From the NCBI RefSeq assembly GCF_900099805.1, contig NZ_FNDR01000001.1:558001-622000 (forward strand): DNA of 64,000 nucleotides, read 5' to 3'. This DNA comes from Variovorax sp. OV700 (GTDB taxonomy: Bacteria > Pseudomonadota > Gammaproteobacteria > Burkholderiales > Burkholderiaceae_C). Shown here piece by piece: positions 2-23,307 of this stretch. The position numbers were made by a program, and so were the translations under genes. A model generated the notes under the pieces. It saw nothing but the letters and a program-made list of their open reading frames with translations. It did not search any database and was not told the DNA's origin. Each line of letters opens with the position of its first letter. Position 1 is the stretch's first letter.

Positions 2-1390
2 GTCATCGGCTACGCGCTGAAGGCCATTCCGCGCGGCAGCTGGGTGCACGAGCGCCTGCTGCAGATGCCCGCGGCGCGCGAGCTCGAAGGCCTGCCGATC
101 GCCACCGTGAAGCCGCCCGTGCAGCCGCCGCTCGAGGGCTACACCTTCGAGGGCTATCGCAACCTCGACGGATCGGTCGGCACGCGCAACATCCTCGCGA
201 TCACGCAGACCGTGCAGTGCGTGGCGGGCGTGGTCGATTTCGCGGTGCAGCGCATCAAGGCCGAGCTGCTGCCCAAGTACCCCAACGTCGACGACGTGGT
301 GGGCCTCTCGCACAGCTACGGCTGCGGCGTGGCCATCGACGCGCCCGATGCGATCATTCCGATCCGTACGCTGCGCAACATCAGCCTCAACCCGAACTTC
401 GGCGGCGAGGTGATGGTCATCAGCCTGGGCTGCGAAAAGCTGCAGCCCGAGCGCCTGCTGCCGCCGGGCAGCATCCCGCTGGTGGACGAGCGCAACGTGG
501 CCGACATCGGCGAGACGGCCAATGCCAAGCTCGACGTGGTGTGCCTGCAGGACGACGCACACGTTGGCTTCATGTCGATGATCGATTCGATCATGCGGCA
601 GGCCGAGGAGCACCTGGAGCGGCTCAATGCGCGCAGGCGCGAGACTGTGCCAGCCAGCGAGCTGGTGGTGGGCGTGCAATGCGGCGGCAGCGATGCATTC
701 TCTGGCGTCACGGCCAACCCGGCCGTGGGCTTTTGCACCGACCTGCTGGTGCGCGCCGGCGCCACCGTGATGTTCTCGGAAGTGACCGAGGTGCGCGACG
801 GCATCGACCAGCTCACCTCGCGCGCGACCACGCCCGAGGTGGCCGACGCCATGATCCGCGAGATGGCCTGGTACGACGCCTACCTGGACCGCGGCCGCGT
901 CGACCGCAGCGCCAACACCACGCCGGGCAACAAAAAGGGCGGGCTCTCGAACATCGTCGAAAAGGCCATGGGCTCGATCGTCAAGAGCGGCAGCGCGCCG
1001 ATCTCCGGCGTGGTCCCCCCGGGCGAGAAGGCAAGGCAGAAGGGCCTGCTCTATGCGGCAACGCCCGCCAGCGACTTCATCTGCGGCACGCTGCAGCTGG
1101 CCGCCGGCATGAACCTGCACGTGTTCACCACGGGCCGCGGCACGCCTTACGGCCTGGCCGAAGTGCCGGTGATCAAGGTGGCGACGCGCAGCGACCTGGC
1201 GCGCCGCTGGCACGACCTGATGGACGTGAACGCCGGCCGCATTGCGGATGGCGACGCCAGCATCGAGGACGTGGGCTGGGAGATGTTCCGCCTGATGCTC
1301 GATGTGGCCAGCGGCAGAAAGAAGACCTGGGCCGAACAGTGGAAGCTGCACAACGCGCTGGTGCTGTTCAACCCCGCCCCCGTGACCTGA
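2..1390 (+). CDS. garD: Galactarate dehydratase (UxaA/GarD family), 5' end outside window
   Basis: Dehydrates galactarate (meso-galactaric acid) to 5-keto-4-deoxyglucarate in cytosolic sugar-acid catabolism. About 462 residues are visible. The reading frame stays open to base 2 with family-like sequence ([20 protein letters not shown]), so the GTG at 44 is internal and roughly 50-60 N-terminal residues lie outside. Family blocks seen include [38 protein letters not shown] and the C-terminal [20 protein letters not shown], which favours GarD over altronate dehydratase. An SDR gene follows after 28 bases and then periplasmic receptors, so a transport and catabolism operon for a sugar acid is inferred. 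The exact substrate (galactarate, glucarate or altronate) is not proved by sequence. Confidence 0.85.
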
Positions 1391-11486: not shown

Positions 11487-12221
11487 GAAGAAGCACCTGA
11501 ATGCGGCAGGCGCACGTCGCTGCGCCCTGCTGCTTCGCCTTCTGCCCGGCGCCCTTCAATGGCCGGCGCAGCACCGATTCCCCAGATTTTTCAAGCAGTT
11601 AGAAGCGGCCGCACGGCCAGGCTTCGGCGTCTTGGGCCTTCGCGCACGCGAACGGTGCCTGCCGACCTTGTTCGGTGCTGCGCACCATGACGCCCCCTCC
11701 CTCAGAACCACGCTGACCGCGCCTTGGCGCGCTTTCCCACGCTCGCATGCGCAACATGCCCATCAAAAGATGGCGCGGGGATTGCTTTTATATTTTTTTC
11801 GATTGAGCAATAAACCCAAACAGGATGCGGCGCGTTATTGGTGATGTAACAGCTTTGAGCCGCTCGATGCTCTTTAGGAGGTGTGTTCGCGGAAAAGATG
11901 CAATGACTGCATATGCCGATCGCCATAGGTATTTTCACTGGGCGGAAGGGTCGCGCGAAGTTCGATTGCCGAACCCTGAAATTTAGCTGGAATTGCCAAA
12001 TGCTGCGGGTTTTTCTCAGGAACTTTACTCGGCACTGTGGTTCTGATTTAACAAAGAATTTTCCGGGTGCACTCTTTGCTTTATGCTGTTTGTGAAGATG
12101 TGATTTAGGGAGTTTTCCACGGCTTGCAGCCATGGGCGGGCACACCTTTAAAAAGTTGCGACGCGTTAAGGCTGCAGGCCTTCGGGACCGATAAACCCGC
12201 AGACCTGATGGAGGCGTGACC
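11487..12221. other. 735-bp intergenic region: dnaJ trailer and prkA leader
   Basis: No convincing gene. The first ~280 bases are GC-rich, with an imperfect hairpin at 11506-11530 just after dnaJ. From about 11770 the composition turns clearly AT-richer than the rest of the window. A sigma-54-type promoter lies at 11771-11786, leaving a predicted prkA leader of about 425 bases. Short open frames here, such as 11913-12095, lack ribosome sites and family resemblance. A small RNA or leader regulation is possible, but nothing specific is seen. Confidence 0.6.
11771..11786 (+). promoter_or_regulatory. Sigma-54 (RpoN) promoter upstream of prkA
   Basis: TGGCGCGGGGATTGCT matches the RpoN consensus TGGCACG-N4-TTGCW at all but one position, with exactly ten bases between the GG and GC pairs. 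It faces prkA. In E. coli the orthologous yeaGH operon is reported to be RpoN/NtrC-controlled, which fits nitrogen-stress expression here. Confidence 0.7.
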
Positions 12222-14144
12222 ATGGATGTGATCAGCAACTTTGCCGCCCGTTACGAGCGCACCCGCGAGGAGGTCCTGTCGCTGCAGGACTACCTGGATA
12301 TTTGCAAACGCGATCCCACAGCGTATGCCACTGCTTCCGAGCGGATGCTCAAGGCCATCGGCGAACCCGAGCTGGTCGACACGCGCAACGATTCCCGGCT
12401 GTCGCGAATCTTCGCGAACAAGGTCATCAAGATCTATCCGGCGTTCAAGGAGTTCTACGGCATGGAGGACGCCATCGAGCAGGTGGTGTCGTACTTCAGG
12501 CATGCCGCCCAGGGGCTCGAGGAGAAGAAGCAGATCCTCTACCTGCTCGGTCCCGTCGGCGGCGGCAAGAGCTCGATCGCCGAGCGCCTGAAGCAGCTCA
12601 TGGAGCACGTGCCGTTCTATGCCATCCAGGGTTCGCCGGTCAACGAAACGCCGCTGGGCCTGTTCGACGCCGTCGAGGATGGTGAGATCCTCGAGAAGGA
12701 ATACGGCATTCCCATCCGCTATCTCAACCGCATTCTTTCGCCCTGGGCCGTCAAGCGGCTCGAGGAGTACGGCGGCGACATCCGCCAGTTCAAGGTCGTC
12801 AAGCGCTACCCGTCGGTGCTGCGGCAGATCGCAGTCGCCAAGACCGAGCCGGGCGACGAGAACAACCAGGACATTTCTTCGCTGGTCGGCAAGATCGACA
12901 TCCGCAAGCTCGAGACCTATGCCCAGGACGACCCCGACGCCTACGCCTATTCGGGCGGCCTGTGCCTGGCCAACCAGGGCCTGCTTGAGTTCGTGGAAAT
13001 GTTCAAGGCGCCCATCAAGGTGCTGCACCCGCTGCTCACGGCCACGCAGGAGGGCAACTTCAAGGGCACCGAAGGCTTTGGCGCCATTCCGTTCGACGGC
13101 ATCGTGCTGGCGCACAGCAACGAGAGCGAATGGAAGGCCTTCCGCAACAACAAGAACAACGAGGCTTTCCTCGACCGGATCTACATCGTCAAGGTGCCCT
13201 ACTGCCTGCGCGCCTCGGAAGAAATCAAGATCTACGAGAAGCTGGTGCGCAACTCCTCGCTTGCCAAGGCGCCGTGCGCGCCCGGCACGCTGCGCATGAT
13301 GGCCCAGCTCTCGGTGCTCACCCGCCTGAAGGAGCCCGAGAACTCCAGCATCTACAGCAAGCTGCAGGTGTACGACGGCGAGAACCTCAAGGACACCGAC
13401 CCGAAGGCCAAGTCGATCCAGGAATACCGCGACTACGCCGGTGTCGACGAAGGCATGAGCGGCGTCTCCACGCGCTTTGCCTTCAAGATCATCTCGAAGG
13501 TGTTCAACTTCGACAGCTCCGAGGTAGCCGCCAACCCGGTGCACCTGATGTACGTGCTCGAGCAGCAGATCGAGCGCGAGCAGTTTCCGCCGGAAACCGA
13601 GCAGAAGTACATCAGCTACATCAAGGAGCTGCTGGCGCCGCGCTATGCCGAGTTCATCGGCAAGGAGATCCAGACCGCCTACCTGGAGAGCTACAGCGAA
13701 TACGGCCAGAACATCTTCGACCGCTACGTGACCTATGCGGACTACTGGATCCAGGACCAGGAGTTCCGCGACGTTGACACCGGCGAAGTGTTCGACCGCG
13801 CCTCGCTCAACGCCGAACTCGAGAAGATCGAGCGGCCCGCGGGAATCGGCAATCCGAAGGACTTCCGCAACGAGATCGTCAACTTCGTGCTGCGCGCGCG
13901 CGCCGGCAACGCGGGCCGCAACCCCGCCTGGACCAGCTACGAAAAGCTGCGCGCGGTCATCGAGAAGAAGATGTTCTCCAACACCGAGGAACTCCTCCCG
14001 GTGATCAGTTTCAACACCAAGAGCAGTGCCGACGAGCAGAAAAAGCACGAGGACTTCGTGACCCGCATGGTCGAGAAGGGCTATACGGCCAAGCAGGTCC
14101 GGCTGCTCTGCGAGTGGTACCTCCGGGTGCGCAAGAGTTCATAG
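12222..14144 (+). CDS. prkA: Serine protein kinase PrkA (YeaG family)
   Basis: A 640-residue AAA-type Ser/Thr kinase homologue, cytosolic, linked in enterobacteria to nitrogen starvation and stationary-phase survival. The Walker A motif GPVGGGKS is at residues 110-117, in the N-terminal AAA-PrkA domain. The conserved stretch GCLVLAHSNESEW-like (IVLAHSNESEWKAFRNNKNN) and the C-terminal PrkA domain follow. GGAGG ends seven bases before the ATG at 12222, which decides that start over the in-frame GTG at 12216. It leads a prkA-yeaH-spoVR operon behind a long leader with a sigma-54-type promoter. Confidence 0.95.
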   Translation: MDVISNFAARYERTREEVLSLQDYLDICKRDPTAYATASERMLKAIGEPELVDTRNDSRLSRIFANKVIKIYPAFKEFYGMEDAIEQVVSYFRHAAQGLEEKKQILYLLGPVGGGKSSIAERLKQLMEHVPFYAIQGSPVNETPLGLFDAVEDGEILEKEYGIPIRYLNRILSPWAVKRLEEYGGDIRQFKVVKRYPSVLRQIAVAKTEPGDENNQDISSLVGKIDIRKLETYAQDDPDAYAYSGGLCLANQGLLEFVEMFKAPIKVLHPLLTATQEGNFKGTEGFGAIPFDGIVLAHSNESEWKAFRNNKNNEAFLDRIYIVKVPYCLRASEEIKIYEKLVRNSSLAKAPCAPGTLRMMAQLSVLTRLKEPENSSIYSKLQVYDGENLKDTDPKAKSIQEYRDYAGVDEGMSGVSTRFAFKIISKVFNFDSSEVAANPVHLMYVLEQQIEREQFPPETEQKYISYIKELLAPRYAEFIGKEIQTAYLESYSEYGQNIFDRYVTYADYWIQDQEFRDVDTGEVFDRASLNAELEKIERPAGIGNPKDFRNEIVNFVLRARAGNAGRNPAWTSYEKLRAVIEKKMFSNTEELLPVISFNTKSSADEQKKHEDFVTRMVEKGYTAKQVRLLCEWYLRVRKSS

Positions 14145-14159
14145 CGACAGTTCATAGCG
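14136..14159 (+). repeat. 13-base tandem duplication at the prkA stop codon
   Basis: AGTTCATAGCG occurs at 14136-14146 and again at 14149-14159, a period of 13 bases. The first copy contains the TAG stop of prkA. It looks like a recent slippage duplication and adjoins the hairpin described next. Confidence 0.8.
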
Positions 14160-14187
14160 GCGAGGCACAGGCTTCGCCCCCTTTTTT
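14159..14187 (+). terminator. Attenuator-like hairpin between prkA and yeaH
   Basis: GGCGAGGC pairs with GCTTCGCC (one G-T wobble) around ACAG, followed by CCC and six T residues. It ends two bases before the yeaH ribosome site AAGGAG. This has the form of an intrinsic terminator inside the operon. Confidence 0.65.
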
Positions 14188-14208
14188 GCAAGGAGCTTTG
14201 ACATCATC

Positions 14209-15501
14209 GTGGCCATCCTGCAGCAGATCATCGACCGCCGGCTTTCGGGCAAGAACAAGTCCATTGGCAACCGCGAGCGCTTTCTCCGGCGCTACAAGGG
14301 GCAGATCCAGGAGGCCGTGCGGCGCGCGGTCAGCGGGCGCAACATCCGCGAACTGGAGCAAGGCGAAGATGTCACCCTGCCGCGCCACGACGTGTCCGAG
14401 CCCTTGTTCGGCCATGCGCGCGGCGGAGACCGCGAGTACGTGCACCCGGGCAACCAGGAATACCTGAAGGGCGACCGCATCGCGCGGCCCGAAGGGCAGG
14501 CCGGCGGTGGCTCGGGCAATGGCGAGGCCGGGGACGGCGGCGAAGGCGAAGACGACTTCGTGTTTCGCCTCACGCGCGAAGAATTCATGCGCGTCTTCTT
14601 CGACGACCTTGCGCTGCCGCACCTCATCCGCACGCAGATCGCCGAGGTGCCCGAATGGAAGAGCCACCGGGCAGGCTTCACGAGCGACGGCTCGCCCAAC
14701 AACCTGCATGTGGTGCGCTCGATGCGCGGCGCCCTCGCCCGGCGCATTGCACTGGGCGGCGAGCCGCGCAAGGAGCTGAAGCGCCTCGAGGCCCACCTGC
14801 TGACGCTGAGGTCGCACCCGCAGGCGGCGCAGGGCCTGATCAAGAATGAAATCCGCGAAATCGAAGAGCAAATCGACGAGATTCGCCGCACCATGCGGCA
14901 CGTGCCCTACATCGATCCCATCGATCTGCGCTACCGCAACCGCGTGAAGACCCCCGTGCCCAGCGCCAAGGCTGTGATGTTCTGCCTCATGGACGTGTCG
15001 GGATCGATGGACGAGGCGCGCAAGGACATGGCCAAGCGCTTCTTCATGCTGCTGTACATGTTCCTCACGCGCCACTACGAGAGGATCGACCTCGTGTTCC
15101 TGCGTCACCATACGCAGGCGCAGGAAGTGACCGAGGAAGAGTTCTTCCACGCCACGGAAACCGGCGGCACCGTGGTGTCTAGCGCGCTGGTGCTCATGGA
15201 CGAGATCATCAAGGAGCGCTACCCGAGCGGCGAATGGAACGTCTACGGTGCGCAGGCCAGCGACGGCGACAACTGGCACCAGGACAGCGGCCGCTGCCGC
15301 GAGCTGCTGGTCGACCACATCCTGCCGGTGGTGCGCTACTACGCCTATGTGCAGGTCGCGGAAACCGAGCAGAACCTGTGGCAGGAATACGCGCAGCTCG
15401 AAGGCATACAGCCCAACTTCGCGATGCGCAAGGTGTCGGACGCGCGGGACATCTACCCCGTGTTCCGCGACCTCTTCAAGAAGGAAGGAGTGCCCGCATG
15501 A
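14209..15501 (+). CDS. yeaH: YeaH/YhbH family protein (DUF444)
   Basis: A 430-residue DUF444 protein, the usual partner of PrkA. The N-terminus IIDRRLSGKNKSIGNRERFL is the family hallmark. A C-terminal von Willebrand A-like fold carries the metal site DVSGSMD at 262-268. A Gly-rich acidic insert (GGGSGNGEAGDGGEGEDD) lies near 100-120. The function is unknown; in E. coli YeaH works with YeaG during nitrogen starvation. The GTG at 14209 has AAGGAG 13 bases upstream, a rather long spacing. It overlaps spoVR by four bases. Confidence 0.9.
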   Translation: MAILQQIIDRRLSGKNKSIGNRERFLRRYKGQIQEAVRRAVSGRNIRELEQGEDVTLPRHDVSEPLFGHARGGDREYVHPGNQEYLKGDRIARPEGQAGGGSGNGEAGDGGEGEDDFVFRLTREEFMRVFFDDLALPHLIRTQIAEVPEWKSHRAGFTSDGSPNNLHVVRSMRGALARRIALGGEPRKELKRLEAHLLTLRSHPQAAQGLIKNEIREIEEQIDEIRRTMRHVPYIDPIDLRYRNRVKTPVPSAKAVMFCLMDVSGSMDEARKDMAKRFFMLLYMFLTRHYERIDLVFLRHHTQAQEVTEEEFFHATETGGTVVSSALVLMDEIIKERYPSGEWNVYGAQASDGDNWHQDSGRCRELLVDHILPVVRYYAYVQVAETEQNLWQEYAQLEGIQPNFAMRKVSDARDIYPVFRDLFKKEGVPA

Positions 15502-17033
15502 CTTCCGAGCACCCTCCCCTCGAACGCCTGGAGCGCCTGCCCAGCCCTTCGGACTGGACCTTCGACCTCATCGAGACCTACCACACCGAGATTGCGAAAA
15601 CGGCCAGGGGCTTCGGGCTCGACGTGTATCCGAACCAGCTCGAGGTGATCACCGCCGAGCAGATGATGGACGCCTATGCCAGCGTCGGCATGCCCATGAT
15701 CTACCGGCACTGGTCGTACGGCAAGCAGTTCATCGCCACCGAGAAGAACTATCGCCGCGGCCACATGGGGCTGGCCTACGAGATCGTCATCAACTCCGAC
15801 CCGTGCATTGCCTACCTGATGGAAGAAAACACCATGGCCATGCAGGCCCTGGTGATCGCCCATGCGGCCTACGGCCACAACAGCTTCTTCAAGGGCAACT
15901 ACCTGTTCCGGATGTGGACCGACGCGTCCTCGATCATCGACTACCTCGTCTATGCGCGGCACTACATCGCCGAATGCGAGGAGCGCCACGGGCTCGACGC
16001 AGTGGAGCAACTGCTCGACTCGTGCCACGCGCTGATGAACTACGGCGTCGACCGCTATCGCCGTCCGCAGAAGCGCTCGCTGGCAAGGGAAGGCGCGCAG
16101 CGCGCCGAACGCGAGCGCCACATGCAGCAGCAGGTCAATGACCTTTGGCGCACCCTGCCCCGCAAGAGCGAGCAGGCCGCGGAGTCCGACGCGTCCCGCC
16201 GCTTTCCTTCGGAACCGCAGGAGAATCTGCTCTATTTCTTCGAGAAGAATGCCGCGCTGCTGGAGCCCTGGCAACGCGAAGTGGTGCGCATCGTGCGCAA
16301 GATCGCGCAGTATTTCTATCCGCAGCGCCAGACGCAGGTCATGAACGAGGGCTGGGCCACCTTCTGGCACTACACCCTGCTGAACACCATGTACGACCGC
16401 GGCCAGCTTGCCGACGGCTTCATGATGGAATGGCTCAGCTCGCACACCGGTGTGATCTTTCAGCCGCCCGTCGGGCATCGCGCCTACAGCGGCATCAACC
16501 CCTATGCGCTGGGCTTCTCGATGTTTACCGAGCTGCGGCGCATCTGCCAGAACCCGACCGAGGAAGACCGCCGCTGGTTTCCCGATTTCGCGGGCACCGA
16601 CTGGGTCAAGACGCTCGACTATGCCATGCGCAATTTCAAGGACGAGAGTTTTGTGGGCCAGTTCCTGAGCCCGAAGACCATGCGCGATTTCAGGCTGTTC
16701 GCGATCCGCGACCACCAGAGCGAGCCCGAGCTCGAGGTGTCCGCCATTCACGACGACAGTGGCTATCACCTGCTGCGCGAATCGCTGTCACGCCAGTACG
16801 ACATCGGCAGCAGGGAGCCCGACATCCAGGTGTGGAACGTCAACATGCGCGGCGACCGCGCCCTGACGCTGCGCCACACGCAGCGCAACAACTTGCCGCT
16901 GCACGACGATGCGGAAGAAGTGCTGAAGCACGTCGCGCGGCTGTGGGGCTTCGACGTTCACTTGGAGAGCGTCGACGCACAAGGTCACATCAGCCGCAGT
17001 TGGAAGGCCGCGGCGCCCAAGCAGACCGACTGA
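15498..17033 (+). CDS. SpoVR family protein (YcgB)
   Basis: A 511-residue SpoVR/YcgB protein. Named for a Bacillus spore-cortex gene, it is widespread in non-sporulating proteobacteria as the third member of the PrkA-YeaH-SpoVR group. Diagnostic blocks are HWSYGKQF, YEIVINSDPCIAYLMEEN, AHAAYGHNSFFKGNYLF and MNEGWATFWHYTLLN. The His/Glu-rich motifs suggest a metal site, though no biochemical role is established. ATG at 15498 overlaps the yeaH stop codon, giving tight translational coupling. Confidence 0.93.
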   Translation: MTSEHPPLERLERLPSPSDWTFDLIETYHTEIAKTARGFGLDVYPNQLEVITAEQMMDAYASVGMPMIYRHWSYGKQFIATEKNYRRGHMGLAYEIVINSDPCIAYLMEENTMAMQALVIAHAAYGHNSFFKGNYLFRMWTDASSIIDYLVYARHYIAECEERHGLDAVEQLLDSCHALMNYGVDRYRRPQKRSLAREGAQRAERERHMQQQVNDLWRTLPRKSEQAAESDASRRFPSEPQENLLYFFEKNAALLEPWQREVVRIVRKIAQYFYPQRQTQVMNEGWATFWHYTLLNTMYDRGQLADGFMMEWLSSHTGVIFQPPVGHRAYSGINPYALGFSMFTELRRICQNPTEEDRRWFPDFAGTDWVKTLDYAMRNFKDESFVGQFLSPKTMRDFRLFAIRDHQSEPELEVSAIHDDSGYHLLRESLSRQYDIGSREPDIQVWNVNMRGDRALTLRHTQRNNLPLHDDAEEVLKHVARLWGFDVHLESVDAQGHISRSWKAAAPKQTD

Positions 17034-17052: not shown

Positions 17053-17079
17053 GCTGGTGCCCGGGCTCAGGGCACCAGC
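17053..17079. terminator. Bidirectional hairpin between spoVR and aroQ
   Basis: GCTGGTGCCC and GGGCACCAGC form a perfect ten-base stem with a seven-base loop. It covers the aroQ stop codon and lies 19 bases past spoVR, so it can end both convergent messages. There is no T-run. Confidence 0.55.
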
Positions 17080-17507
17080 GCCGCGATGGCCAGCGTGTAG
17101 CCTTTCACGCCAAGACCCACGATGATGCCGCGCGCCGCCGGCGAAATGTACGAGCGGTGGCGAAACTCCTCGCGCGCGTGCACGTTCGAAATGTGCAGTT
17201 CGATCAACGGCACGCTCGCGCCCTTGATGGCGTCGTGCAGCGCGATCGAGGTGTGGGTGTAGGCGCCCGGGTTCATCACCACGCCGAGCATGTTGCCTGC
17301 GGCCACCTCGCGGCCCGCCTCGTGAATCCAGTCGATCAGGACGCCTTCGTGGTTCGACTGGCGGCATTCGATCTCGACACCGTGCTTTGCGCCCGCCTCC
17401 GCGCACAGGCGCTCGACGTCGGCCAGCGTGTCGCGCCCGTATTGCTCTGGTTCGCGCGTGCCCAGCAGGTTGAGATTGGGGCCGTTGAGGACGAGTATTT
17501 TCTTCAT
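17067..17507 (-). CDS. aroQ: Type II 3-dehydroquinate dehydratase
   Basis: Third step of the shikimate pathway: reversible dehydration of 3-dehydroquinate to 3-dehydroshikimate, by a dodecameric cytosolic enzyme. The 146 residues are the normal length. Key motifs are [17 protein letters not shown] (with the flexible-loop Arg and catalytic Tyr), [15 protein letters not shown], and [18 protein letters not shown] with the catalytic His. AGAAAATACTCG-type leader sequence and the palindrome at 17512-17535 precede the start. It is divergent from the Rieske operon, with only 75 bases between the two starts. Confidence 0.96.
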
Positions 17508-17511
17508 GATG

Positions 17512-17535
17512 ATGGCGGTCGGAGCGAGCCGCCAT
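17512..17535. promoter_or_regulatory. Inverted repeat in the aroQ leader
   Basis: ATGGCGG at 17512-17518 and CCGCCAT at 17529-17535 are perfect inverted arms ten bases apart, immediately upstream of aroQ. It could be a hairpin in the aroQ messenger or a regulator site for the divergent promoters. Confidence 0.4.
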
Positions 17536-17549
17536 TATGGGCGAGCCCC

Positions 17550-17567
17550 ATCGCAATGACTTGCGAT
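17550..17567. promoter_or_regulatory. Perfect 18-bp palindrome before the Rieske operon
   Basis: ATCGCAA-TGAC-TTGCGAT has two perfect seven-base arms. It sits 15 bases before the ATG of the Rieske gene, in the divergent aroQ/Rieske spacer. Length and symmetry fit a dimeric transcription factor operator. The regulator is not identifiable in the window. Confidence 0.5.
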
Positions 17568-17582
17568 AAGGTAACGCGAATC

Positions 17583-18263
17583 ATGAGCGCAGACAGCAGC
17601 ATTTCAACCTGGCACCCGGTGGCCCGCTCGGCCGAGCTGCGCCTCGGTGCCAACATCGTCGCCGGCTTTGCAAAGGGCCAGGAGTTCGCGCTCTGGCGGT
17701 CGGCGGACGGCGCACCTCAGGCATGGGAGAACCGCTGCCCGCACCGCAGCGTGCGCTTCACGCTGGGCCACGTGATGAAAGACCGCCTCTCCTGCGCCTA
17801 CCACGGCTGGCAATACGCCGCGGGCAGCGGCCAGTGCACCCAAATTCCCGCGCACCCCGACATGCCGCCGCCGCGCAACGTCTGCGCGAAGGTGTTCAGC
17901 GCGGTCGATGCGGCCGGCATGCTGTGGGTCCATCTCGCTGACGCGGAGCCGCCGCCTCTGCCGCGGGACGACGCCGTTCCCCCGGGGTGGTCGTTCTGCC
18001 GCACGCTCGCCGTTCGAGCCGATGCGGCGGGTGCGCGCGATGCACTCGCGGCACGCGGTTTCAGCGCGGATGCGTCTCTGCCCGCCATGCGCGGCGCACT
18101 CGATCACATCGATGCCGTGGCGCTGGTGCTCGATGCCCAACCACGGCTGGCCTTCATCCACCTCTGGACCGATGCCGCGCCCGGCACCGAAGCGATGAAG
18201 GCGCTGCACGTCGCCGCACGCGGCCTGCGCGGCGAGATCGAGGCACGGCAGCCGGCCGCCTGA
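17583..18263 (+). CDS. Rieske [2Fe-2S] protein with non-catalytic C-terminal extension
   Basis: 226 residues. The Rieske domain (about 10-115) has complete cluster ligands: Cys52 and His54 in CPHRSVRF, Cys71 and His74 in CAYHGWQY, followed by the usual GMLWVHLADAEPPPLP strand. The remaining ~105 residues look like a shrunken oxygenase remnant without any N-x2-D-x2-H-x4-H iron site, and no flavin or plant-type ferredoxin domain is present. It should therefore carry electrons, not oxidise substrate. It directly precedes a Rieske-less oxygenase gene (18-base gap), so it probably donates electrons to that protein. ATG at 17583 chosen; ATG at 17556 is an in-frame alternative. Confidence 0.85.
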   Translation: MSADSSISTWHPVARSAELRLGANIVAGFAKGQEFALWRSADGAPQAWENRCPHRSVRFTLGHVMKDRLSCAYHGWQYAAGSGQCTQIPAHPDMPPPRNVCAKVFSAVDAAGMLWVHLADAEPPPLPRDDAVPPGWSFCRTLAVRADAAGARDALAARGFSADASLPAMRGALDHIDAVALVLDAQPRLAFIHLWTDAAPGTEAMKALHVAARGLRGEIEARQPAA

Positions 18264-18281
18264 GCGAAGAAAAAAAAGCCC

Positions 18282-19145
18282 ATGCCCTTCATCACCGACG
18301 ACCCCAACATGCTCGACGACTGGCTGGTCGCCGGCTCCGCCGCCGCGCTGGCCGGCAGCTCCGAAGCAAAGCCCCGCGCAGCACGCCTGCTCGGCGAAAC
18401 GCTGCAGCTTTGGAGCGATGCGGCCGGCACGCCGCAATGCCGGCTGGGTTCGCAGGCGCTGGCCGTCCAGTCGCGCCACGGCTATCTCTGGGTCTGCCCC
18501 AGCGGCAAGCCCGTGCGGCCGCTGTTCGATTTTCCGGAGTTTGGCGAAGCCGGGCGCCGCATCGTCGATTGCGGCGGCATCGGCGTGGCCGTGTCGGGAC
18601 TGCGCGTGATCGAGAACTTTCTGGACATGGCGCACTTCCCCTTCGTGCATGCCGACATCCTGGGCAAGGTGCCGCACACCGAGGTGGCCAGGTACCAAGT
18701 GCAGGTCGACCCCGGCACGGGCGAGATCTGGGCCACAGACTGCCGCTTCTGGCAACCGCGCGCGTCGGCGGCTCACGACAGCGGCAGCGAGGTGCTCTAC
18801 AAGTACCGGGTGATGCAGCCGCTCACCGCCATGCTCTACAAGTCGAGCTCGCGCAACGGCGAGCTCGATGCGATCGGCCTGTTCCTGCAACCGCTGGATG
18901 ACGAACACGTGATTGCCCACACGCTGCTGGCCTGCTACGACGACACCTCGACCGATGCCGAGCTCATCGCGTTCCAGCACACGATCTTCGGCCAGGACAA
19001 GCCGATTCTCGAAAATCATGCCTTCAAGCGCATGCCGCTCGAAGGCCGCGCCGAGACGCCGACGCGCGGCGACACCTCCTCCGTCACCTACCGGCGCTGG
19101 CTGCGAGAGCGCGGCATGCGCTTCGGTGTGAGGCAGCCCGAATGA
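18282..19145 (+). CDS. Rieske-less ring-hydroxylating oxygenase (VanA/NdmC-like catalytic subunit)
   Basis: 287 residues. The C-terminal catalytic fold keeps all iron ligands: ENFLDMAHFPFVH supplies Asn112, Asp115, His118 and His123, and GQDKPILEN supplies the third ligand Asp239. The N-terminal part still resembles a Rieske domain start (RLLGETLQLWSDAAGTPQC) but the C-x-H and C-x2-H cluster motifs are absent. A typical VanA-type enzyme is about 350 residues. This is the layout of NdmC, whose Rieske centre is supplied by NdmD. It lies between the Rieske gene and a GST-like gene, overlapping the latter by four bases. Demethylation of an N- or O-methyl compound is inferred; the substrate is unknown. 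Confidence 0.8.
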   Translation: MPFITDDPNMLDDWLVAGSAAALAGSSEAKPRAARLLGETLQLWSDAAGTPQCRLGSQALAVQSRHGYLWVCPSGKPVRPLFDFPEFGEAGRRIVDCGGIGVAVSGLRVIENFLDMAHFPFVHADILGKVPHTEVARYQVQVDPGTGEIWATDCRFWQPRASAAHDSGSEVLYKYRVMQPLTAMLYKSSSRNGELDAIGLFLQPLDDEHVIAHTLLACYDDTSTDAELIAFQHTIFGQDKPILENHAFKRMPLEGRAETPTRGDTSSVTYRRWLRERGMRFGVRQPE

Positions 19146-19780
19146 TCCGGCTCTACGACTATGCGCTGTCTGGCAACTGTTTCAAGGTGCGGCAGATGCT
19201 CGCCTGGCTGGGCCTCGACTACGAGAGCGTGCCGATCGACTTTCATCCGGGACGCGAGCACAAGTCGGCCGCGTTCCTGTGGCACGTCAACCCGCTCGGG
19301 CAGCTGCCGGTGATCGATGACGACGGCTTCGTGCTGCGCGATGCGCAGGCCATCCTCGTCTACCTCGCGAGCAAGCACGACACGCAAGGCCGCTGGTACC
19401 CGGGCGATCCGCGGTTGCGCGGCCAGATCGCGATGTGGTTCGCCACCGCCGACGAAATCACCCGCACCGCGTCGGCGGCGCGACTTCACGATGTTTTCGG
19501 CTACGAGCATCTCGACATCGAAGCCTGCCGGCGCGGCGCCCATGTGGTCTTTCGACTGCTCGACGACCACCTGGCCGAGCGCGCGAGCGGCGGGCTCCAA
19601 TGGCTGGCCGGTCCGCACGCCACCGTGGCCGACCTGGCCTGCTTTCCGTACGTGGCGCTGGCCGGTGAAGGCGGAATATCTCTTGACGAATATCCGGCGT
19701 TGCGACGCTGGGTCTGGGACTTTCGACACCTGCCCGGTTTCATCGGAATGTCGGGTATCTTTGCCGCGACTCCAGCCTGA
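19142..19780 (+). CDS. Glutathione S-transferase-like protein (possible NdmE-type partner)
   Basis: 212 residues with a thioredoxin-fold N-terminus (MIRLYDYALSGNCFKVRQML, NPLGQLPVIDDDGFVLRDA) and an all-helical GST C-terminal domain (HATVADLACFPYVALAGEGG). The Ser in SGNCFKV is placed where GST active-site Ser/Cys residues occur. The start overlaps the oxygenase stop (ATGA), a strong hint of co-assembly. In P. putida, NdmE is a GST homologue needed structurally for the NdmC/NdmD complex; the same role is inferred here. An independent detoxifying GST remains possible. Confidence 0.8.
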   Translation: MIRLYDYALSGNCFKVRQMLAWLGLDYESVPIDFHPGREHKSAAFLWHVNPLGQLPVIDDDGFVLRDAQAILVYLASKHDTQGRWYPGDPRLRGQIAMWFATADEITRTASAARLHDVFGYEHLDIEACRRGAHVVFRLLDDHLAERASGGLQWLAGPHATVADLACFPYVALAGEGGISLDEYPALRRWVWDFRHLPGFIGMSGIFAATPA

Positions 19781-19832
19781 ACGCGGTCTGGGTATCCTTG
19801 CCTCTCCCATCCCCTCTTTGCCCTGAAGCCCC

Positions 19833-20939
19833 ATGAAAACCAAAGCTGCCGTCGCCTGGAAATCCGGAGACCCCCTCACCATCGAAACCGTCGACCTCGA
19901 GGGCCCCAAGTTCGGCGAGGTGCTGGTCGAGATCAAGGCCACCGGCATCTGTCACACCGACTACTACACGCTCTCCGGCGCCGACCCGGAAGGCATCTTC
20001 CCCGCCATCCTCGGCCATGAAGGCGCGGGCATCGTGGTCGACGTGGGCCCCGGCGTCACCACGCTGAAAAAGGGCGACCACGTCATTCCGCTCTACACGC
20101 CCGAATGCCGCCAGTGCAAGTTCTGCCTGTCGCGCAAGACCAACCTCTGCCAGCTGATCCGCGGCACGCAGGGCAAGGGCCTGATGCCCGATGCCACTTC
20201 GCGCTTCAGCCTGGACGGCAAGCCGATCTTCCACTACATGGGCACTTCGACCTTCAGCAATTACACGGTCGCCCCCGAGATCTCGCTGGCCAAGATCCGC
20301 GAGGACGCCCCCTTCGACAAGGTCTGCTACATCGGCTGCGGTGTGACCACCGGCATTGGCGCCGTGATCTTCACGGCCAAGGTGGAAGCCGGCGCCAACG
20401 TGGTGGTGTTCGGCCTCGGCGGTATCGGCCTGAACGTGATCCAGGGCGCCAAGATGGTGGGCGCCGACAAGATCATCGGCGTCGACCTCAACCCCGAGCG
20501 CGAGGCCATGGCGCGCAAGTTCGGCATGACGCACTTCCTCAACCCGAAGGATCACGAGAACATCGTCGATGCCATCGTCCAGCTGACCGACGGCGGCGCC
20601 GACTACAGCTTCGAGTGCATCGGCAATACCAAGGTGATGCGCCAGGCGCTGGAGTGCACGCACAAGGGCTGGGGCCGCAGCATCATCATCGGCGTGGCCG
20701 AAGCGGGTGCGGAGATCAGCACGCGTCCGTTCCAGCTGGTCACCGGCCGCAAGTGGGAAGGCTCGGCCTTCGGCGGCGCGCGCGGCCGCACCGACGTGCC
20801 GAAGATCGTCGACTGGTACATGGAAGGCAAGATCAACATCGACGACCTGATCACGCACACCATGCCGCTCGAAGACATCAACAAGGGCTTCGACCTGATG
20901 AAGCGCGGCGAATCCATCCGCGGCGTGGTTCTGTACTAG
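19833..20939 (+). CDS. frmA: S-(hydroxymethyl)glutathione dehydrogenase (class III ADH)
   Basis: Oxidises the formaldehyde-glutathione adduct to S-formylglutathione with NAD+. The 368 residues are the standard length. Catalytic zinc ligands are in [12 protein letters not shown] and GHEGAGIV. The structural zinc loop is [15 protein letters not shown]. The class III signature continues with [11 protein letters not shown] and the NAD fold [17 protein letters not shown]. It lies 52 bases after the GST-like gene and shares its direction with the formylglutathione hydrolase two genes on. Together they would clear formaldehyde released by the upstream oxygenase (inference). Confidence 0.96.
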
Positions 20940-20961
20940 CCCCCTGAAGAAAACGCCCGCC

Positions 20962-21885
20962 ATGAACCGCATGGAGCCCTTGCGCAAGATCGAAGCGGGC
21001 GTTCTGGAAGTCGCGTACTTCGAAGCCGGCCCCGCGGATGGCCCGCCCGTGCTGCTGATGCACGGCTTTCCCTACGACATTCATACCTACGCCGAAGTGG
21101 CGCCAATGCTCGCCGGCCAGAGCTGCCGCGTCATCGTGCCCTACCTGCGAGGCTACGGCGCCACGCGCTTCCTGAGCGATGCCACGCCGCGGTCGGGCGA
21201 ACAGGCCGCGCTCGGCGCCGACCTGCTCGCGCTGCTCGATGCCCTCGCCATTCCGCGCGCGGTGCTCGCTGGCTACGACTGGGGCGGACGCGCCGCCTGC
21301 GTGGTGGCGGCGCTGTGGCCCGAGCGCTGCGCGGGGCTGGTCTCGTTCAACAGCTACAACATCCAGGACATCGCGAAGGCGATGGAGCCCGACACGCCCG
21401 CGAACGAGCACAGCCTCTGGTACCAGTACTACTTTCACAGCGAGCGAGGCCGCGCCGGGCTGGCGAAGGACCGCAAGGCCCTCACCCGCCTGCTGTGGCA
21501 GCTGTGGTCGCCCACGTGGAAGTTCGACAACGCCACCTTCGAGCGCAGCGCCGCCGCCTTCGACCACCCCGACTTCGTCGACGTGGTGATTCACTCGTAC
21601 CGGCATCGGTTCGGGCTCGTTGCGGGCGACCCGGCCTACGGCTACATCGAGCGCCGTCTGGCCGCACAGCCGGCGATTGCCGTGCCCACCATCACCTTCG
21701 ACGGCCTCGACGACGGGGTGCGTCCGCCCGCCGACGCGTCGGCCCATTCGCACCGCTTCAGCGGGCCGCGCTCGCACCGGCTGGTGCCCGGCGTCGGCCA
21801 CAACATGCCCCAGGAGGCGCCGCGCATCTTTGCCGACGCCGTGCTCGAACTCGTGCCCGCACTCCACAACAACACCGCCCGATGA
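20962..21885 (+). CDS. Alpha/beta hydrolase (epoxide hydrolase-like)
   Basis: 307 residues with an alpha/beta-hydrolase fold. The oxyanion block is LLMHGFPYD, the nucleophile elbow is GYDWGGRA (Asp as nucleophile), and the late catalytic His is in VPGVGHNMPQE. An Asp nucleophile points to the epoxide hydrolase or dehalogenase branch rather than an esterase. A helical cap with many aromatic residues (SLWYQYYFHSERGRAG) lies in the middle. It is inserted between the two formaldehyde-oxidation genes and overlaps the second by four bases. Its substrate is unknown and may be related to that of the oxygenase. Confidence 0.82.
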   Translation: MNRMEPLRKIEAGVLEVAYFEAGPADGPPVLLMHGFPYDIHTYAEVAPMLAGQSCRVIVPYLRGYGATRFLSDATPRSGEQAALGADLLALLDALAIPRAVLAGYDWGGRAACVVAALWPERCAGLVSFNSYNIQDIAKAMEPDTPANEHSLWYQYYFHSERGRAGLAKDRKALTRLLWQLWSPTWKFDNATFERSAAAFDHPDFVDVVIHSYRHRFGLVAGDPAYGYIERRLAAQPAIAVPTITFDGLDDGVRPPADASAHSHRFSGPRSHRLVPGVGHNMPQEAPRIFADAVLELVPALHNNTAR

Positions 21886-22757
21886 CCGACATCCTCAAGA
21901 CCCTTTCCGAGCACCATGCCTTTGGCGGCGTGCAAAGCTTTCACGAGCACGCCTCGCACGAAATCGGCCTGCCGATGCGCTTCTCGGTCTACCTGCCGCC
22001 GCAGGCCGCGAACGAGCGCGTGCCGGCCCTGCTCTACCTCGCGGGGCTGACCTGCAATGAGGAAACCTTCGCGGTAAAGGCCGGCGCGCAGCGCATGGCC
22101 GCCAGCCTGGGCCTGGCGCTGATCGCGCCCGACACCAGCCCGCGCGGAAGCGCCGTCGAAAGCCTGCCCGGTGCCACCGCCAACTGGGACTTCGGCATTG
22201 GCGCAGGCTTCTACCTCGACGCCACCGAAGCGCCCTGGTCCGCCCACTGGCGCATGGAAAGCTGGATCGTGCACGAGTTGCTGCCCTTCGTGGCGCGGCA
22301 CTTTGCCATCGACGACCAGCGCCTGGGCATCTGCGGCCATTCGATGGGGGGCCACGGCGCGCTCACGCTCGCGCTGCGGCACCCCGGGCGCTTCAAGTCG
22401 CTGTCGGCGTTCGCCCCCATCTGCGCACCCACGCAATGCCCGTGGGGCGAAAAAGCGTTCAGCGGCTACTTGGGCGAGCCGGGCGGCGACCGGGCGCAGT
22501 GGCTTGCGCACGACGCCAGCGCATTGATGAAATCGCAGATCGCCGCGCCCTACCCCCAGGGCATCCTGATCGACCAGGGGCTCTCCGACAAATTCCTTGC
22601 CGAGCAACTCCACCCGGAGGCCTTCGAGGCGGCCTGCTTTGCCGCCAGCCAGCCCGTCACGCTGCGCCGGCACGCGGGCTACGACCACGGCTACTACTTC
22701 ATCCAGACTTTCATGGCGGATCACATCGCGCACCACGCACAAACACTCAACGGTTGA
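21882..22757 (+). CDS. frmB: S-formylglutathione hydrolase
   Basis: Hydrolyses S-formylglutathione to formate and glutathione, the second step of glutathione-dependent formaldehyde oxidation. 291 residues, esterase D family. Seen are LAGLTCNEETFAVKAG, the nucleophile elbow GHSMGGHGA, the APICAPTQCPWGEKAF block, and the catalytic His in AGYDHGYYF. The ATG at 21882 overlaps the preceding hydrolase stop. Its presence in the same transcript as frmA is what links the cluster to formaldehyde. Confidence 0.95.
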   Translation: MTDILKTLSEHHAFGGVQSFHEHASHEIGLPMRFSVYLPPQAANERVPALLYLAGLTCNEETFAVKAGAQRMAASLGLALIAPDTSPRGSAVESLPGATANWDFGIGAGFYLDATEAPWSAHWRMESWIVHELLPFVARHFAIDDQRLGICGHSMGGHGALTLALRHPGRFKSLSAFAPICAPTQCPWGEKAFSGYLGEPGGDRAQWLAHDASALMKSQIAAPYPQGILIDQGLSDKFLAEQLHPEAFEAACFAASQPVTLRRHAGYDHGYYFIQTFMADHIAHHAQTLNG

Positions 22758-22803
22758 ACGGCTGATCGACCTTGGCGTAAGGGCGCCGTATCATGGAGCG
22801 CAT

Positions 22804-23307
22804 ATGTCCGCAGCACAGATTCCTGCCTTCCATTTGCGCTCCCGCGACGGCGCCGCCGAAGAGAACCTGGTGCTCGCCGGCATCTGGCGCCGGGCCTGGA
22901 TCGCGGCCAACCGCAGGGCCACCGTCATCGAGCCCATCACGCATTGGCTGCGGCGCGTGCAAACCGAATTCGTGCCGCCGGCCGACGTGGTACTGGCCGA
23001 GCGCGAAGGCCAGGTCCTCGCTTTCATGGTGCTGCTGGCGCGTCGCGAATACGTGGCACAGCTCTTTGTCGAACCTCATCTGCGCAACCAGGGTCTCGGA
23101 CAGGCGATGCTCGACGAAGCCAGCGTGCGCATGCCGTTCGGCTGGAAGCTGCACGTGGCCACCAGCAACACCGCGGCGCAGCGCTTCTACGAGCGCTACG
23201 GCCTGGAGCGCGGCGCTGTCGACCGGCACCCGTCCAGCGGGCGCGAACGGGTCGCCTACCATTGGTATCCGACGAGCCCGCCGCGACAGCCGCGACGCAT
23301 TGGCTGA
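22804..23307 (+). CDS. GNAT-family N-acetyltransferase
   Basis: 167 residues. The acetyl-CoA pocket is recognisable as VAQLFVEPHLRNQGLGQAML (the Q-x-x-G-x-G/A region), followed by NTAAQRFYERYGLE, the usual last helix and strand of GNAT enzymes. The ATG at 22804 is preferred over longer upstream readings because homologous sequence begins there. It is 46 bases after frmB. The acceptor substrate (amine, amino acid or protein) is not predictable. Confidence 0.85.
   Translation: MSAAQIPAFHLRSRDGAAEENLVLAGIWRRAWIAANRRATVIEPITHWLRRVQTEFVPPADVVLAEREGQVLAFMVLLARREYVAQLFVEPHLRNQGLGQAMLDEASVRMPFGWKLHVATSNTAAQRFYERYGLERGAVDRHPSSGRERVAYHWYPTSPPRQPRRIG

What the first reader, a model, noticed from the sequence alone, without database searches (positions are those of the whole stretch)
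17583..22757. Split Rieske demethylase (NdmC/D/E-like) linked to formaldehyde detoxification
Seen: a Rieske [2Fe-2S] protein with intact ligands (C52/H54, C71/H74) but no oxygenase iron site and no reductase domain; next, an oxygenase with an intact iron triad (H118, H123, D239) but no Rieske ligands; then a GST-like protein overlapping it by 4 bases. Known: in P. putida CBB5, NdmC lacks its Rieske domain, NdmD supplies it and the GST homologue NdmE is required for the complex. The next genes are frmA and frmB, which oxidise formaldehyde, the product of Rieske demethylases. Inference: an uncharacterised split N- or O-demethylase with its own formaldehyde clearance, whose reductase is encoded elsewhere.
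Basis: partly seen in the sequence, partly recalled or inferred. Interest (0 to 1): 0.88.

Follow-up and report, generated by a model that had tools for sequence, protein, structure and literature searches.

The report
Two-chain split Rieske demethylase operon
A soil bacterium (probably Variovorax) carries a demethylating enzyme whose electron-carrying chain and iron-bearing chain look like two copies of one ancestral enzyme, each of which lost the other's metal site, placed directly upstream of the cell's formaldehyde-disposal genes; it is an unfused variant of the known caffeine enzyme NdmCDE.

Summary
Window 17583-19780 encodes a Rieske protein (226 aa, ligands intact), an oxygenase (287 aa, iron triad intact, no Rieske ligands) and a GST, then frmA, an alpha/beta hydrolase and frmB. 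Against a Pseudomonas caffeine cluster the oxygenase is 44% identical to NdmC, the GST 55% to NdmE, and the Rieske protein 39% to the N-terminus of NdmD. It is an NdmCDE relative whose Rieske part is a separate gene with no reductase attached. AlphaFold models show that neither chain is a bare domain: the Rieske chain matches full-length oxygenases along its whole length, and the oxygenase keeps a cluster-less Rieske fold. The pair looks like one duplicated oxygenase with reciprocal loss of metal sites. In relatives the reductase is absent, separate, or fused to either chain. A PnrA-like ABC binding protein lies near 45 of 62 relatives outside the main Variovorax set, and full-length relatives sit beside purine-catabolism genes, so an N-methylated purine is the likeliest substrate. 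One correction: frmA is genus-wide housekeeping, and the trio sits between aroQ and frmA. No complex was modelled; substrate and reductase are unproven.

The parts
17583..18263 (+). Rieske chain (226 aa): intact [2Fe-2S] Rieske domain (res. 9-120, ligands C52/H54/C71/H74) plus what looks like a vestigial catalytic domain (res. ~121-226); counterpart of the N-terminal ~240 residues of NdmD without reductase
18282..19145 (+). NdmC-like oxygenase chain (287 aa): iron triad H118/H123/D239 and D115 intact; N-terminal ~75 residues a Rieske-like fold without cluster ligands
19142..19780 (+). NdmE-like GST (212 aa), overlaps the oxygenase gene by 4 bp; 55% identical to NdmE of a caffeine cluster
19833..20939 (+). 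frmA, S-(hydroxymethyl)glutathione dehydrogenase (TIGR02818 over cut-off); genus-wide housekeeping gene, one match in this genome at E<=1e-100
20962..21885 (+). alpha/beta hydrolase between frmA and frmB; seen also in 10 of 11 trio-less loci read
21882..22757 (+). frmB, S-formylglutathione hydrolase (TIGR02821 over cut-off)
17067..17507 (-). aroQ (type II dehydroquinase), left flank of the site; directly adjacent to frmA in 5 of 11 trio-less loci read; not part of the system

Best explanation
The three genes encode a two-chain Rieske N-demethylase of the NdmCDE type in its unfused form. SHOWN by sequence and models: the Rieske chain has an intact cluster site and a second, smaller domain that aligns with the catalytic domain of full-length oxygenases; the oxygenase chain has an intact iron site and a shrunken Rieske-like domain without ligands; the GST is an NdmE homologue. 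INFERRED: an ancestral full-length oxygenase was duplicated and the copies lost opposite metal sites. This is tolerable because in Rieske oxygenases electrons already pass between neighbouring subunits (about 12 A) and not within one (about 45 A). In the working enzyme a PDR/VanB-type reductase supplied in trans (candidate G000:C23:182421) would reduce the Rieske chain, which docks on the oxygenase chain with the NdmE-like GST as scaffold. The iron then activates O2, hydroxylates an N-methyl group, probably on a methylated purine or related base, and releases formaldehyde, which FrmA and FrmB oxidise to formate through glutathione.
Against: No complex was modelled, so cluster-to-iron distance is untested; the oxygenase chain's own relic Rieske domain might occupy the docking site. 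Sequence evidence that the Rieske-chain tail derives from a catalytic domain is weak (tail against oxygenase E 0.013, probability 3.3; tail against full-length relatives E 0.3, probability 0.2; NdmD linker against oxygenase E 3.9e-4, probability 36), so that step rests on structure. The Rieske tree does not show the split Rieske chains as one clade (AU p 0.212, not rejected). The window's own locus has no purine gene or transporter, and only 1 of 18 Variovorax loci has BMP; the purine inference is by kinship. The candidate reductase is missing from 2 of 48 trio genomes and present in 22 of 53 others.
Confidence: 0.7

Rival explanations
1. The Rieske chain is only an electron-carrier ferredoxin with an odd tail, as in three-component dioxygenases, and the NdmC-like chain works with it like an ordinary oxygenase and its ferredoxin; there was no reciprocal loss from one ancestor.
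Against: The whole chain aligns to full-length oxygenases through residue 293 of GxtA; the Rieske part is 34-50% identical to Rieske domains of the 24 full-length oxygenase loci of the same family read; the tail is homologous to the NdmD linker and under purifying selection (dN/dS 0.29-0.52 in six pairs).
Confidence: 0.15
2. It is an O-demethylase or another oxygenase of aromatic or plant compounds, not a purine enzyme; the frm genes would serve it all the same.
For: VanA_C is named after vanillate O-demethylase; the window locus lacks transporter and purine genes; the Variovorax loci differ from BMP-linked relatives (1 of 18 has BMP).
Against: NdmCDE relatives with known or suggestive context are purine-linked: caffeine cluster L220, urate hydroxylase and purine permease in L059, xanthine dehydrogenase in L060, 8-oxoguanine-deaminase-like gene and BMP transporter in L221.
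Confidence: 0.25
3. It is a decaying NdmCDE locus: the NdmD gene lost its reductase half and the rest is on the way out.
For: Some relatives keep BMP, LysR and reductase genes that the window lacks; three Paracoccus copies have lost a cluster cysteine.
Against: The short Rieske chain has a steady length (median 223 aa over 43), occurs with free reductases in other genera, and shows purifying selection; 48 of 101 genomes of the genus keep the oxygenase at 80% identity or more.
Confidence: 0.07

Closest known systems
NdmCDE (7-methylxanthine N7-demethylase) of Pseudomonas putida CBB5 and close caffeine clusters
   Same: Rieske-less oxygenase, separate Rieske-bearing chain, required GST-type chain, frmA/frmB nearby (PMC4408171 and PMC10380055, passages read)
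   Different: In NdmD the Rieske part is fused to an FMN/NADH/plant-ferredoxin reductase; here it is a 226-aa chain on its own. 39-55% identity to the chains of L220. Substrate unknown.
NdmA/NdmB and other VanA-type homomeric demethylases (DdmC, guaiacol O-demethylase 7qwt)
   Same: Same fold and kind of metal ligands, counted over the two chains together
   Different: Those carry both metal sites in one chain.
SxtT/GxtA Rieske oxygenases (PDB 6wn3, 6wnc)
   Same: Nearest solved relatives of both halves by sequence and by fold
   Different: Single-chain oxygenases from another pathway; a fold yardstick only.
Full-length Rieske oxygenases of the same bacterial family in purine loci (L046-L056, L200)
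   Same: In 24 loci read, 34-50% identity to the Rieske chain and 34-47% to the oxygenase chain; PnrA-like BMP in 10 of 11 larger loci
   Different: One chain, both metal sites, no NdmE-like GST seen in the 3.6-3.7-kb stretches read.

Membership tests
NdmCDE-type split N-demethylase | oxygenase chain with iron triad and no Rieske ligands | tested here: met
   43.8% to NdmC of L220
NdmCDE-type split N-demethylase | NdmE-like GST encoded alongside | tested here: met
   54.7% to NdmE of L220 over 214 positions; 79 of the 80 NdmE-like loci kept also hold an NdmC-like gene, the 80th (L087) is cut off by the contig end
NdmCDE-type split N-demethylase | NdmD: Rieske domain fused to FMN/NADH and plant-type ferredoxin reductase | tested here: not met
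   226-aa chain with Rieske only; Pfam finds Rieske plus Fer2 in NdmD of L220
NdmCDE-type split N-demethylase | N7-demethylation of 7-methylxanthine with formaldehyde release | not testable with these tools
   needs an assay
NdmCDE-type split N-demethylase | soluble 3:3:3 complex | not testable with these tools
   stoichiometry as reviewed in PMC10380055; only single chains can be modelled here
Rieske non-haem iron oxygenase (alpha subunit fold) | Rieske ligands C-x-H...C-x2-H and 2-His-1-carboxylate iron site | tested here: met
   met by the two chains together, by neither alone
Rieske ferredoxin of three-component dioxygenases | ~100-aa Rieske protein without a second domain | tested here: not met
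   226 aa, aligned to full-length oxygenases over 4..226

The most novel reading that the evidence does not exclude
One Rieske oxygenase was duplicated and the two copies lost opposite metal sites, giving an enzyme that can only work as a mixed complex. Its reductase module has since been shuffled: absent (trans), a free gene, fused to the Rieske chain (the known NdmD) or fused to the oxygenase chain. NdmCDE would then be one outcome of a wider combinatorial family that mainly demethylates purines salvaged through PnrA-like transporters, and the window holds its barest form.
Probability: 0.65. Interest if true: 0.72.

Novelty: new variant of a known kind. Interest (0 to 1): 0.56.

Why it matters
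[quoted passage not shown] A form in which the Rieske chain stands alone separates the two events (splitting and fusion), offers a small three-chain complex without the reductase for structural work, and lets the rule that electrons move between, not within, subunits be tested directly. The purine context suggests a use well beyond caffeine, such as recycling of methylated bases (inference).

Tried and rejected
Ancestral architecture: not resolved. The Rieske tree (90 of the 131 rows gathered, near-duplicates dropped) places NdmD fusions in one weakly supported group (50/19; 85/68 together with L130 and L131), while the oxygenase tree (71 of 155 rows; dropped: near-duplicates, the Paracoccus loci L117/L125/L136, the full-length genes found inside NdmE loci, and full-length rows L015, L018, L021, L023, L025, L038) rejects one clade for fused loci (AU p 0.0027). 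I therefore do not claim that the window form is ancestral or derived. A quick tree of all 155 rows also keeps split and full-length forms apart (99).

Full-length oxygenase loci were meant as a control for BMP linkage and failed as one: 10 of 11 had BMP. Controls used instead: 0 of 11 trio-less aroQ-frmA loci and 5 BMP matches in the whole genome.

An apparent BMP fragment in L076 proved to be antisense to a LysR gene, caused by a false N-terminal extension of one query, and was dropped; with all 37 queries trimmed and matches of at least 150 residues required, the counts stood. One search used a wrong reading frame for the L064 BMP gene; one search replaces it. My gene caller is a rough script, so neighbour counts by clustering are approximate.

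Partner reductase: two orphan candidates, on contigs without a Rieske hit. C34:24968 sits next to a protein that I recall as a MOSC type and was set aside; C23:182421 co-occurs with the trio (46 of 48 against 22 of 53) but this is confounded by phylogeny and not proof. In the reductase tree C23 falls near, not inside, the Ndm-type reductases.

Viral contigs: no relative of the GST. A NCBIfam match of the Rieske chain to 4beta-methylsterol monooxygenase is far below its cut-off (55.6 against 600). Promoter and terminator scan of 17400-22900: nothing useful. Paper searches for a free-standing Rieske subunit, NdmCDE variants or Rieske methylpurine enzymes listed none in this open-access library; most subscription papers, among them the NdmCDE paper of 2013, are not held, so absence from print is not shown. 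Four of the 53 split copies examined in the genus were not adjacent to frmA (G217 and G297 with frmA on another contig, G289 second copy, G211); two more copies on short contigs, G252 and G265, were left out of that count.
Full report
Where it is. The window lies at G000:C30:558001-622000 of a 6.48-Mb genome. The genus is inferred to be Variovorax: the nearest named locus for the GST is Variovorax sp. Root318D1 (92% identity), and the 'same genus' genome G122 has a contig of the same length (351,821) as the named Variovorax sp. Root473 contig.

What is there. Seven genes matter: aroQ (minus strand), then on the plus strand Rieske chain, oxygenase, GST, frmA, alpha/beta hydrolase, frmB. Gaps between the plus-strand genes are 18, -4, 52, 22 and -4 bases, consistent with one transcript (inference; the promoter scan was uninformative). 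A further invariant residue, D115, sits three before H118; that this is the bridging aspartate of Rieske oxygenases is recalled knowledge, not a tool result.

Kinship. A P. putida MT178 plasmid (L220) carries what looks like a complete caffeine cluster; the gene taken as NdmA matches PDB NdmA at E 1.1e-229 and its NdmD matches the PDB NdmD ferredoxin fragment at E 4.7e-47; NdmB, NdmC and NdmE there are named by position. Against it the window oxygenase is 43.8% identical to NdmC over 281 positions, the GST 54.7% to NdmE over 214, and the Rieske chain 38.9% to residues 6-130 of NdmD. Pfam finds Rieske plus Fer2 in that NdmD and Rieske alone in the window chain.

Survey. Of 80 loci, 40 have a Rieske-reductase fusion (NdmD type), 38 a free Rieske gene without any fusion, 1 a free Rieske gene with an oxygenase-reductase fusion (L091), and 1 is cut off beside the GST (L087). 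Where the Rieske gene is free, a reductase gene may be absent from the stretch, downstream of the oxygenase, upstream of the Rieske gene, or after the GST. Oxygenase-reductase fusions also occur in unnamed relatives (L045, L198, L201). A free Rieske trio exists in Rhizobium too: R. phaseoli L221, the only one of these Rhizobium records read. In a sample of 398 genomes of the phylum (own and G122 included), 17 have a GST match at E 1e-55 or better; how many of these are true NdmE was not checked.

How it most likely works. In Rieske oxygenases the cluster of one subunit serves the iron of its neighbour at about 12 A, against about 45 A within a subunit (PMC12445004, PMC10380055, passages read). 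A cell that holds two copies can therefore lose the cluster in one and the iron in the other and still have every needed pair at an interface (inference). NdmCDE was reported as a 3:3:3 complex in which the GST is structural (PMC10380055). I infer that the window enzyme is built alike, with electrons from a separate reductase. The exact geometry is open, because the oxygenase chain keeps a relic Rieske domain of its own. Of nine reductase matches in the genome, five lie within about 4 kb of another Rieske match and two (C15, C13:526169) are weak; C23:182421 and C34:24968 are on contigs without a Rieske hit. C23 is found in 46 of 48 trio genomes and 22 of 53 others: a candidate, no more.

Formaldehyde genes. 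frmA is in 97 of 101 genomes of the genus and this genome has one match at E 1e-100 or better. Of 11 trio-less loci read, five (G232, G227, G214, G235, G269) have aroQ directly beside frmA; in five others 1.9-2.4 kb of other sequence lies between, and in one aroQ is not within the stretch. Of 53 split copies in the genus examined, 49 lie on the same strand directly upstream of frmA (46 at 686-769 bases from oxygenase to frmA, three at 1.7-1.8 kb). The three distant ones (G240, G294, G292) are of a version only 46-47% identical; in the two that were read (L197, L198) it sits at the same aroQ-frmA site with a reductase module between oxygenase and GST. Two divergent versions at one site support a functional tie to formaldehyde removal. 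Whether the trio was gained or lost in particular lineages was not polarised.

Substrate. BMP (PnrA-like, PF02608 for the one representative tested) lies near 45 of the 62 loci outside the 18 main Variovorax loci: 16 of 22 with a free Rieske gene or cut off, 29 of 40 of NdmD type. In several free-Rieske loci it is the gene just before the Rieske gene. Baselines: 5 matches in the whole own genome and 0 of 11 trio-less aroQ-frmA loci. In the main Variovorax set 1 of 18 has it: L064, with aroQ, LysR, BMP, trio, frmA, hydrolase, frmB. Nine others have 1.1-1.2 kb between aroQ and the Rieske gene, with a LysR gene there in all nine, and eight have 56-100 bases, like the window. Full-length relatives sit in purine loci: BMP in 10 of 11, and by clustering adenosine deaminase in 5, guanine deaminase in 4 and xanthine dehydrogenase small subunit in 4 of 11, one representative of each confirmed above a curated cut-off. 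R. phaseoli has an 8-oxoguanine-deaminase-like enzyme (below that model's cut-off) and a BMP transporter in the same run of genes. An N-methylated purine is thus the leading guess for the window enzyme, by kinship only.

Verdict. The new content is the stand-alone Rieske chain, the evidence that both chains are complementary remnants of one fold, and the shuffling of the reductase module. I rate it a new variant of a known kind.

Noticed in passing
L117:3964-4485, L125:3933-4487, L136 near 3963: Paracoccus genomes carry a second trio whose Rieske chain has lost the second cluster cysteine (no C-x-H...C-x2-H motif) and whose oxygenase is on a long branch; a cluster-dead copy next to an intact one.
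   Followed up: no
L221:4518-12606 (Rhizobium phaseoli plasmid): Free Rieske trio followed by an 8-oxoguanine-deaminase-like amidohydrolase and a BMP-type ABC transporter; 124 Rhizobium plasmid records hold a related GST at E 1e-30 or better.
   Followed up: partly
L197:7823-9696 and L198:9744-11594: Near-identical reductase modules, one free and one fused to the oxygenase, beside aroQ and frmA in two congeners; could be a recent fission or an assembly frameshift.
   Followed up: no
L194:8004-16636 (own genome C23): Orphan PDR-type reductase in a run of genes with a cytosine-deaminase-like gene (below that model's cut-off) and what look like ABC transporter genes, with no Rieske hit on the contig; function unclear.
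   Followed up: partly
L040 and L042 (unnamed same-family genomes): Free Rieske trios within several kb of a BMP transporter gene and of genes that look like pseudouridine kinase and glycosidase (names by eye, not tested); hints at modified nucleosides.
   Followed up: no
L046-L056, L200: Full-length relatives of both chains sit in purine loci (BMP, ABC transporter, adenosine and guanine deaminases, xanthine dehydrogenase) and look like uncharacterised purine demethylases.
   Followed up: partly
window 12216-17033: Three plus-strand genes upstream of aroQ look like a PrkA / YeaH / SpoVR cluster (names recalled, not tested).
   Followed up: no
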